Of a stretch of DNA of 64,000 bases, positions 62,287-64,000 are shown in pieces (the first letter of the stretch is position 1; each line of letters begins with the position of its first letter). Location: assembly GCA_020073385.1 (NCBI GenBank), contig JAIQFH010000009.1, forward strand, positions 62,001 to 126,000, in the 5' to 3' direction. The DNA comes from Terriglobia bacterium (GTDB lineage Bacteria; Acidobacteriota; Terriglobia; Terriglobales; Acidobacteriaceae). Below the pieces are notes generated by a model. It was given only the letters and a program-made list of their open reading frames with translations. It had not been told where the DNA came from and searched no databases. Position numbers and translations under genes: made by a program.

Positions 62287-62330
62287 CGTTTCTTAGCCTT
62301 TAGGTCGTCAAAGTTTGAGTGGTGAAGTGT

Positions 62331-62412
62331 GAGCCATGAGTTGTGAGCATTGAGCGGCGAGTACTAAGCGGTGACTCCCAAAGTTTTACTCATTGCTCAC
62401 TACTCATGGCTC
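62331..62412. repeat. Intergenic palindrome, GAGCCATGAG family
   Basis: Arms 62331-62354 and 62389-62412 match at 22 of 24 bases. It is built of TGAGC/GCTCA words and lies between the convergent TonB-like and recN genes. Confidence 0.8.
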
Positions 62413-62440
62413 GTTGTTTATTGCTCATCACTGACGATGA

Positions 62441-64000
62441 TCAGGCATTGGCCTTGATCATCTGCTCGGCGTGCTTGCGCGAGGTTTCGGTGAGTTTGGC
62501 TCCGCTGAGCATGCGGGCAACTTCCTCGGTACGCTCTTCGCCAGTCACAGGACGAATGCTGGTCCGGGTGCGCCCGCCATGTTCTTTCTTTTCGATCACA
62601 AAATGCTGATCGCCGAAGGTGGCGATCTGCGGCAGATGCGTCACGCAAAGCACTTGATTCGAGCGGGCCAGCGACTTCAGCTTCTTTCCGACCGCCTCAG
62701 CCGCTCGCCCGCCAATCCCGGTATCGATCTCATCGAACACCAAAGTCTTCTGGGTGCCCCATCCTTGTCGCGTTTTTTGCAGAGACAGGGCCGCCCTGAG
62801 CGAAGTCGAAGGGGTGGGGGTTTTGACTTCCTTCCCGCCCTCCACGCATGCCTTCAGCGCCAGCATCACCCGGGATAACTCCCCACCGGAAGCAATGTGC
62901 TCCAGTTGGCGCATCGGCTCACCCGGATTGGTCGAAATCATGTACACGACCTGGTCGATCCCCGACGCCGTCCATTCCCGCTCTTCTTCCGACGTCGTTT
63001 TCTGAATGCGGAATGTCGACTTCATCGCCAGATCGTTGATCTCAGCTTCGACGAGTTTCTCCAATTTGCGCGCAGCATCGGCTCGCTTCTTCGAGAGCGT
63101 TCTCGCGGCCTTCAGATACTCGTTTGCCGCCTCAGCCAACTCACCCTGCAGTTGCCGCAGGATTTCGTCCTTGTTCTCAACCTCGGCAAGCTTGCGGGAA
63201 ACATCCGCGCCAAATTGAATTACCTCGTCAAGCGTTGGCCCATACTTCCGCTTCAACCGATCGAGCAAAGCCAGCCGGTCCTCCACTTGCGCCAGATGCT
63301 CCGGTGAGGCCTGAATTCCTCCAGCGTAATCGCGCAGCGTGGCGCCCACATCTTCCACACTGATGCGCGCTGACTCCAGCGCGGCCAACGCATCCTGAAA
63401 CTTGGGCTCGTAGCGCGCTAACTCCTCGACCTGCTTCTGTGCCCCGCGCAGCGAAGTCGCCGTCGAACCATTGCCTTCGTATAGCAGATCAAAGGCATTC
63501 ATCGCCGCGCTGTAAATCTTCTCGGCATTGGCGAGCACGCGCTTCTCGGCTTCCAGCCGCTCGTCTTCCCCGCTCTGCAGCCGGGCCTCTTCAATCTCAC
63601 GCTTCTGGAAGGTCCACAAGTCGACCAGCCGCAATTTGTCTTGCTCGCCGCGCTCCAGTTCCTCGATGCGCGTGCGAATCTCCTTCCACGCGGCGTAAGC
63701 GGCCGACACCGACTCGATCTCGCTGCCGGCGAATGCATCCAGCAACTCCAGCCGCGCCGGTCCGTCAAACGAAAGGATGGATTCGTTTTGTGCGTGGATG
63801 ATTGCCAAGTGAGGCGCCAGCAGTTTCAGCACCGACACGGTGGCGGGCTGATTATTGACGAACACTCGCCCCTTGCCACCCGACGCGATCTCGCGCCGCA
63901 GAATCAGCGAGCCGTCATCCGACTCATCCAATCCGTTGGCGTCGAGGATCTTCTCGAGCGCTTTCTCGGCTTTGCCTTCCGCCTCGAAAACGGCAGCGAT
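62441..64000 (-). CDS. recN: DNA repair ATPase RecN (N-terminus off window)
   Basis: The frame runs to the window edge, giving about 519 residues; the Walker A region is missing. LILRREIASGGKGRVFVN and HLAIIHAQNES are typical of RecN, followed by a long coiled coil. The ABC signature is HIASGGELSRVMLALK, Walker B is TLVFDEIDTGIGG, and the end is VLCVTHLPQIA. RecN is an SMC-like protein that holds broken ends during recombinational repair. Between ALKACVEGGKEV and KTLVFDEID there is an insert of about 25 residues not normal for the family (see 62750-62824). The catalytic parts visible appear intact. Confidence 0.95.
   Translation of the reverse strand: MAAVFEAEGKAEKALEKILDANGLDESDDGSLILRREIASGGKGRVFVNNQPATVSVLKLLAPHLAIIHAQNESILSFDGPARLELLDAFAGSEIESVSAAYAAWKEIRTRIEELERGEQDKLRLVDLWTFQKREIEEARLQSGEDERLEAEKRVLANAEKIYSAAMNAFDLLYEGNGSTATSLRGAQKQVEELARYEPKFQDALAALESARISVEDVGATLRDYAGGIQASPEHLAQVEDRLALLDRLKRKYGPTLDEVIQFGADVSRKLAEVENKDEILRQLQGELAEAANEYLKAARTLSKKRADAARKLEKLVEAEINDLAMKSTFRIQKTTSEEEREWTASGIDQVVYMISTNPGEPMRQLEHIASGGELSRVMLALKACVEGGKEVKTPTPSTSLRAALSLQKTRQGWGTQKTLVFDEIDTGIGGRAAEAVGKKLKSLARSNQVLCVTHLPQIATFGDQHFVIEKKEHGGRTRTSIRPVTGEERTEEVARMLSGAKLTETSRKHAEQMIKANA
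62750..62824 (-). mobile_element. Small palindromic element inserted in frame in recN
   Basis: About 75 bases encode KTPTPSTSLRAALSLQKT and RQGWGTQ between the ABC signature and Walker B of RecN. On the minus strand the stretch begins CCCCACCCCTTCGACTTCGC and ends ACAAGGATGGGG, so its ends are an imperfect inverted repeat (CCCCACCCCTT / AAGGATGGGG). Inside is the palindrome GGGCGGCCC region. The length is a multiple of three and no stop is introduced. The mobile nature is inferred from the repeat-like ends and its absence in typical RecN. Confidence 0.6.

What the first reader, a model, noticed from the sequence alone, without database searches (positions are those of the whole stretch)
62750..62824. 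Palindromic mini-element inserted in frame within recN
A stretch of about 25 codons separates the ABC signature from Walker B, where RecN normally has a short link. Its DNA has imperfect inverted ends (CCCCACCCCTT / AAGGATGGGG), a length divisible by three and no stop codon. It looks like a small mobile palindrome that has entered a coding region and is tolerated, comparable in idea to the palindromic elements found inside Rickettsia proteins.
Basis: partly seen in the sequence, partly recalled or inferred. Interest (0 to 1): 0.7.

Follow-up and report, generated by a model that had tools for sequence, protein, structure and literature searches.

The report
Hairpin DNA repeats inside RecN loop
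A small hairpin-shaped repeat has inserted in frame into a flexible loop of the DNA-repair protein RecN, and related soil bacteria carry other such repeats at the same place, so the loop looks like a recurrent, tolerated landing site for tiny mobile DNA.

Summary
Window 62752-62829 (minus strand) is a 78-bp in-frame insert between the RecN ABC signature and Walker B. It is a dispersed repeat: 41 further matches in its own genome, while the other 1101 bp of recN searched have none below E=0.09. It is composite: hairpin element A with unit B (24 bp) nested inside. In 30 of 30 readable same-genus genomes the linker is long (43-82 residues; usual 33) and in frame; 21 of 30 match at least one of four repeat units (A, B, D, E) better than 1000 shuffles, against 1 of 46 outside the genus. 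Y1/RAYT-type transposase genes are flanked by A-, D- and E-type repeats. recN outside the linker is under strong purifying selection, and the insert is the only stretch below pLDDT 50 in a model of a relative's RecN. Best reading: RAYT-type palindromes land repeatedly in one permissive loop. REPs inside genes, including repair genes, are known (PMC3733652); my searches found no report of this RecN site.

The parts
62441..64000 (-). recN (DNA repair ATPase), 5' part cut by the window edge
   Evidence: ORF list; Pfam SMC_N and AAA_23 on the full ORF in L051; matches D. radiodurans RecN structures
62870..62890 (-). ABC signature SGGELSR
   Evidence: translation read against the sequence
62752..62829 (-). 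composite repeat A(B), 78 bp, in frame
   Evidence: 9 near-full-length copies in the genome counting itself; rest of recN is not repeated; A(B) copies aligned by eye
62813..62829 (-). 5' part of element A (AAGTCAAAACCCCCACC)
   Evidence: comparison with A copies without B such as L016
62789..62812 (-). unit B, 24 bp (25 bp in intergenic A(B) copies read), nested in A
   Evidence: 69 pattern matches against 0 in control; junction by eye; A without B at this site in L054
62752..62788 (-). 3' part of element A (inner arms decayed, ends GGATGGGGCACCC)
   Evidence: half copies matching query 51-89
62723..62743 (-). Walker B strand LVFDEID
   Evidence: translation; aligned to 4ad8

Best explanation
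The insert is a palindromic element of the REP/RAYT (or TIR) type, element A, with a second small repeat B nested in it. The likely route: a Y1 (HUH) transposase that recognises A placed a copy into the part of recN that codes for a flexible loop between the ABC signature helix and the Walker B strand. It was kept because it preserves the frame, adds no stop, and the loop tolerates extra residues. In this genus (by its named relatives, Acidobacteriaceae of the SbA1 / Candidatus Sulfotelmatobacter kind) the loop has been occupied more than once, by at least three unrelated palindrome families (A, D, E), which are inherited for a time, decay, and are replaced or nested by others. Shown: dispersed-repeat identity, nesting, different families at one site, open frame, purifying selection on the rest of recN, loop position in a model, transposase genes flanked by A-, D- and E-type repeats. 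Inferred: that these transposases moved the elements, that the loop is translated as predicted, that tolerance rather than benefit keeps the inserts, and that insertion rather than conversion made each change.
For: Repeat status with control. Nesting of B in A, C and other repeats. 21 of 30 genus linkers match A, B, D or E against 1 of 46 outside. Linker is the only strongly length-variable place in 27 aligned RecN: 22 lengths, 3-42 residues, 565 other columns always filled. A(B), D and E are dispersed in 40, 40 and 33 of 41 genus genomes. 7 Y1_Tnp genes; D on both sides of one, C on both sides of another, A-type near others; E around a Y1_Tnp ORF in G015. dN/dS 0.037-0.103 outside the linker in six pairs. 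pLDDT below 50 only at 471-495 of L115 RecN. Same repeats in frame in Lhr, ImuB, WecB and others.
Against: 9 of 30 genus linkers match no unit. L120, a named relative 73% identical in RecN, has a 40-aa linker with no match. Family labels follow the tree in part: minimum 3 changes for 17 strict rows, 6 for 23 rows labelled by eye, against 6.3 and 10.0 for shuffled labels, so much is inheritance. Many forks of that tree are weak (13 of 28 starred). A copies in RecN that I read all lie in one orientation and frame, which fits common descent as well as repeated insertion. A flanks at L103 score only just above shuffles (16 against 14 and 13). No transposase was found for B. No protein evidence.
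Confidence: 0.8

Rival explanations
1. One old insertion at the base of the genus that has since only drifted; the apparent families are one element diverged.
For: A copies share orientation and frame; labels cluster on the tree more than shuffled ones; D in RecN of G003, G015 and G033 is 90% alike or more over 63 bp; compensated stems could arise by drift under pairing.
Against: A, D and E have no common sequence and each is a separate dispersed family; at least 3 label changes are needed on every one of 500 bootstrap trees; sisters L064 and L066 differ in the linker (dS 1.44 over 15 codons) while the rest of recN is at dS 0.16; B is present in L053 and absent in its sister L054.
Confidence: 0.1
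2. The inserts are selected: the loop sequence or the hairpin in recN does something useful, for example tuning RecN activity or recN mRNA.
For: 30 of 30 genus genomes read have a long linker; paired arms of A inside recN are compensated, 13 both-side changes, 0 of 500 shuffles; PMC3733652 speculates that REPs in repair genes change their activity.
Against: Unrelated sequences of 43-82 residues total length fill the place; several are decayed; the compensation is also expected if different A subfamilies landed or were converted there; the window's own copy no longer folds well; many unrelated proteins carry the same repeats.
Confidence: 0.07
3. An ordinary disordered linker that lengthened by drift, with chance likeness to repeats.
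For: Sister genera and the sister family have somewhat longer linkers too (39-56 aa) without repeat matches.
Against: Near-full-length DNA copies elsewhere in the genome at E down to 2e-20, none for the rest of recN; 21 of 30 against 1 of 46.
Confidence: 0.01
4. The stretch is removed or bypassed at the RNA level or during translation, so RecN protein does not contain it.
For: Nothing here excludes it; no protein data.
Against: The signature-to-Walker B frame is open in 30 of 30 genus copies; B is one base shorter in the three RecN A(B) copies read than in intergenic ones; no Rfam match at the site.
Confidence: 0.02

Closest known systems
Rickettsia palindromic elements (RPEs); PMC10969869 passages, PMC3733652 section 15
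   Same: Palindromic repeats of several families inserted in frame in unrelated protein-coding genes, adding about 20-50 residues.
   Different: Here the host is a free-living acidobacterial group, the elements are 25-80 bp, relatives of the same families flank Y1 transposase genes, and one position of one protein is used by several families across a genus. No sequence comparison with RPEs was made.
REP elements and RAYT transposases, GTAG/CGTC families; TIRYT transposases of Acidobacteria; PMC3733652 (section 15 and passages)
   Same: Short palindromes, many copies, around Y1 transposase genes. In-gene copies are described, many in DNA synthesis and repair genes, and different REPs at about the same site of recB in two Xanthomonas species. 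Acidobacteria transposases flanked by inverted repeats not of the GTAG kind are described there.
   Different: No GTAG tag seen at the ends of A, D or E copies read. recN does not occur in that paper's main text. Genus-wide change of occupant at one site is not in the passages I read.
MITEs
   Same: Small non-autonomous elements that can fuse in frame to genes (PMC10969869).
   Different: Terminal inverted repeats and target-site duplications were not tested.

Membership tests
RAYT-associated REP/TIR palindromes | Short palindromic unit able to form a hairpin | tested here: met
   A in RecN: 90.3% of pair cells standard, 13 both-side changes, 0 of 500 shuffles, on 12 segments I cut around the hairpin, which leans towards pairing; further pair types are not above shuffles (243 of 500). 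The window copy itself does not fold well.
RAYT-associated REP/TIR palindromes | Many interspersed copies | tested here: met
   with controls
RAYT-associated REP/TIR palindromes | Cognate Y1 transposase gene flanked by the element in the same genome | tested here: inconclusive
   Met for D (L105 both sides) in this genome and for E in G015 (Y1_Tnp 25.0 bits, cut-off 23). For A, copies lie on both sides of L103 by eye but score only 16 against shuffle maxima of 14 and 13; A also lies downstream of L101 and L104. None for B.
RAYT-associated REP/TIR palindromes | GTAG or CGTC tag at one end | tested here: not met
   Read by eye on the A, D and E copies printed: no GTAG at the ends of the units as I define them. 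So not filed as a GTAG REP; nearer the TIR type.
RAYT-associated REP/TIR palindromes | Mobilisation by the transposase | not testable with these tools
   needs bench work
Rickettsia palindromic elements | In-frame insertion in conserved protein genes | tested here: met
   RecN plus 7 further places among 43 distinct places read
Rickettsia palindromic elements | Sequence kinship with known RPE families | not tested
   no RPE sequence was fetched
MITE | Terminal inverted repeats and target-site duplication | not tested
   no base-level empty site was aligned

The most novel reading that the evidence does not exclude
The RecN loop is not merely permissive but a preferred docking site: resident palindromes act as targets for further palindromes (B nested in A, C and E), so several transposase-repeat systems keep rewriting one loop of a repair ATPase, and loop length and charge become a fast-changing, lineage-specific trait of RecN.
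Probability: 0.2. Interest if true: 0.85.

Novelty: new variant of a known kind. Interest (0 to 1): 0.6.

Why it matters
In-frame palindromes are usually reported gene by gene. Here some thirty related species form a natural series in which one position of one protein, between the ABC signature and Walker B, is filled by unrelated mobile hairpins while the rest of the protein stays under strong constraint. That makes it testable whether such inserts are neutral or functional, how fast they turn over, and whether hairpins serve as landing sites for other hairpins. It also warns annotators that peptides such as PSTSLRA, ALSEVEG or CPERSRR in these genomes come from repeats, not from domains.

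Tried and rejected
Folding energy: the window copy gave no signal (z=+1.5); with mononucleotide shuffles 5 of 30 genus linkers lay at z -2.7 or lower, and so did 3 linkers outside the genus (L082, L133, L160). Repeat homology, not folding energy, carries the case.

Elements built to be readable in every frame: rejected. Mean open frames per copy against dinucleotide shuffles: A 4.92 and 4.43, B 4.92 and 4.85, D 4.75 and 5.29, E 6.00 and 5.68.

B always landing in hairpin loops: not established. Flank complementarity 5.84 against 5.03 for re-paired flanks (highest of 300: 5.71), but 1 of 31 copies exceeds the 99th percentile of random positions.

Long RecN spans (G133, G115, G152 and others): I read nine linkers. 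G133 is normal at the linker; G115 and G152 have 47 and 46 aa without a repeat that I recognised; they were not scored against the repeat references.

In-gene share: among loci L001-L050 there are 43 distinct places (7 pairs coincide); 8 lie in ORFs with Pfam support: RecN, Lhr twice, HGSNAT/OpgC-like, WecB, M28/TFR, ImuB, GluQ. ORFs for one search were chosen by eye; 20 more ORFs gave no Pfam family. Alternative frames at the same places and ORFs under 140 aa were not scanned, and matches without a locus were not examined, so 8 of 43 is a lower bound for those read.

Rows dropped: genus genomes without RecN match (G002, G006, G013, G023, G027) or without linker in the contig (G005, G024); duplicates L108, L112 and L237-L238; outgroup loci L088, L089, L090, L099 and L265, in which my expression found no linker, before the count of 46. 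L146, which carries B, and L120, L133, L148, L160, L164 were scored only and are not in the 46. RecN of G031 (L078) is split between two frames upstream of the linker; its linker is in frame with both motifs.

Full report
What is in the sequence. The recN ORF occupies 62441-64000 on the minus strand. Between SGGELSRVMLALKACVEGG and QKTLVFDEIDTG lies a 78-bp stretch, 62752-62829, without a stop in frame. D. radiodurans RecN (4ad8) has 6 residues between aligned blocks where the window has 33.

It is a dispersed repeat. A 101-base query with the insert has 42 matches in its genome counting itself; 9 (itself included) are near full length at 81-100% identity, most others cover one half. A core pattern has 69 matches and none in the reversed control. 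The other 1101 bp of recN give no second match below E=0.09. In the genus, 40 of 41 genomes searched have matches.

It is two nested elements. Copies printed show element A alone (for instance AGTCAAAATCCCCACCCTGTCGCACAAAACGCGACAAGGGTGGGGCACCC in L016) and A with a 25-bp unit B at one junction (TCCCCACC^CTGTCGC). Of 31 distinct B copies listed, by eye 8 lie in A, 8 in palindromes of the GGACAGCC...GGCTGTCC kind (C) and 4 in CACAGAGG-type repeats. In RecN of the window, G034 and G004 the B unit is 24 bp by my reading, which fits a need to keep frame.

The site is unusual within the genus. Of 36 same-genus genomes, 5 had no RecN match and 2 lacked the linker; with the window's genome 30 linkers are readable, all open between the two motifs, 43-82 residues from SGGELSR to DxG. 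In G031 the gene is split between two frames upstream of the linker. In 27 aligned RecN, 565 columns are filled in every row, while the linker takes 22 lengths. Among 80 named-genome loci 77 linkers were readable and 44 are exactly 33. Other genera of the same family have 39-46; family f2 of the same order has 33-56 in the loci read. L120, a named relative at 73% identity, has 40 and no repeat match. The names of the nearest records (SbA1, gp1 AA131, a Candidatus Sulfotelmatobacter MAG) are my basis for placing the group.

Different repeats fill the site. With references checked to lie outside RecN loci and 1000 shuffles per linker, 21 of 30 genus linkers match at least one unit (A 11, B 8, D 5, E 2; some two); of 46 outside the genus 1 does, D in L118, possibly chance. 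9 of 30 match none; by eye several look like decayed A or E. D has matches in 40 of 41 genus genomes and E in 33 of 41 with control 0; G001, whose RecN carries E, has 36. Outside the genus L146, an acidobacterium, has B in the linker, and L160, labelled Nitrospirae, a stretch that looks to me like another repeat.

Transposases. The genome has 7 Y1_Tnp genes, with palindromes near them in the printed flanks. By score D lies on both sides of L105, C on both sides of L107 (C references composed by me), A downstream of L101 and L104; A on both sides of L103 is plain to the eye but scores 16 against shuffle maxima of 14 and 13; L102 matches none of the five; L101 and L106 have weak D matches. In G015 inverted copies of E enclose an ORF with a Y1_Tnp match of E=2.3e-5, 25.0 bits against a cut-off of 23. 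No transposase was found for B.

History. On a RecN tree built without the linker (13 of 28 inner branches well supported), family labels need at least 3 changes for 17 strictly tested rows and 6 for 23 rows labelled by eye (3-4 and 5-8 over 500 bootstraps); shuffled labels need 6.3 and 10.0 on average. So elements are inherited for a while and exchanged more than once. Sisters L064 and L066 have dS 0.16 outside and 1.44 inside the linker (15 codons, rough). Between L062 and L069 the D-bearing linker is more alike at synonymous sites (pS 0.28, 23 codons) than the rest (0.62), which hints at conversion or re-insertion; L062 and L076 do not show this (0.60 and 0.62). L053 and its sister L054 differ by B. 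The inner stems of 12 hand-cut RecN copies of A are compensated (13 both-side changes, 0 of 500 shuffles), as expected if different A subfamilies landed or were converted there; this alone does not show selection for a hairpin.

RecN is kept. dN/dS outside the linker is 0.037-0.103 in six pairs. A model of L115 RecN (75-residue linker) has mean pLDDT 89.6, and the only segment below 50 is 471-495, between a helix ending at 467 and a strand at 501-505. I infer a disordered, exposed loop.

Not only RecN. In this genome the same repeats are in frame in an Lhr-type helicase (two places), ImuB, WecB, an M28/TFR-type peptidase, an HGSNAT/OpgC-like protein and GluQ. In ImuB the first insert is absent from all nine same-genus loci aligned over it (two further loci are second pieces of these genomes), and the second differs or is absent in the eight that reach it; the two Lhr sites hold other stretches or little in relatives, C-like ones in L214 and L218.

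Prior work. PMC3733652 (section 15 whole, other passages) describes REPs inside genes, many in repair genes, cites in-frame RPEs, and describes Acidobacteria transposases flanked by inverted repeats; recN does not occur in its main text. PMC10969869 (passages) reviews in-frame RPEs. PMC6006769 was seen in passages only. Searches that showed no report of this RecN site: (listings; for only part of the hits was listed). The library lacks most subscription journals.

Verdict. A new variant of a known kind: in-frame palindromic repeats, here with one loop of a repair protein occupied in turn by several families, A, D and E of them linked to transposase genes, across a genus.

Noticed in passing
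window 62310-62440: Intergenic tract between the TonB-like gene and recN made of gagc/tgag-rich near-repeats whose halves look inverted (gagcggtgactccc ... actcattgctcactactcatggctc); a similar stretch lies beside the A copy in L012.
   Followed up: no
L009 (G000:C13:170125-173201): Lhr-type helicase with two repeat insertions, A(B) and another B-bearing repeat; in relatives the same two places hold other stretches, some repeat-like.
   Followed up: partly
L048 / L193 (G000:C59): ImuB-like protein with two repeat-coded inserts that relatives lack or replace.
   Followed up: partly
L146 RecN linker: Acidobacterium RIFCSPLOWO2_12_FULL_67_14b has unit B (ALSGVEG) at the same RecN place, so the loop takes inserts outside the genus too.
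   Followed up: partly
L160 RecN linker: A Nitrospirae-labelled RecN has a 51-aa linker with KLITHNSEL, coded by AACTCATAACTCATAACTC, which looks like a dispersed repeat; copies elsewhere in that genome were not searched.
   Followed up: no
L101-L107 (G000): Seven Y1_Tnp genes, each with palindromes close by and several different palindrome families; a set of transposase-repeat pairs in one genome.
   Followed up: partly
L076 RecN linker (G003): Besides D the linker holds a small direct duplication (AGGGCAAATCGCTGC twice).
   Followed up: no
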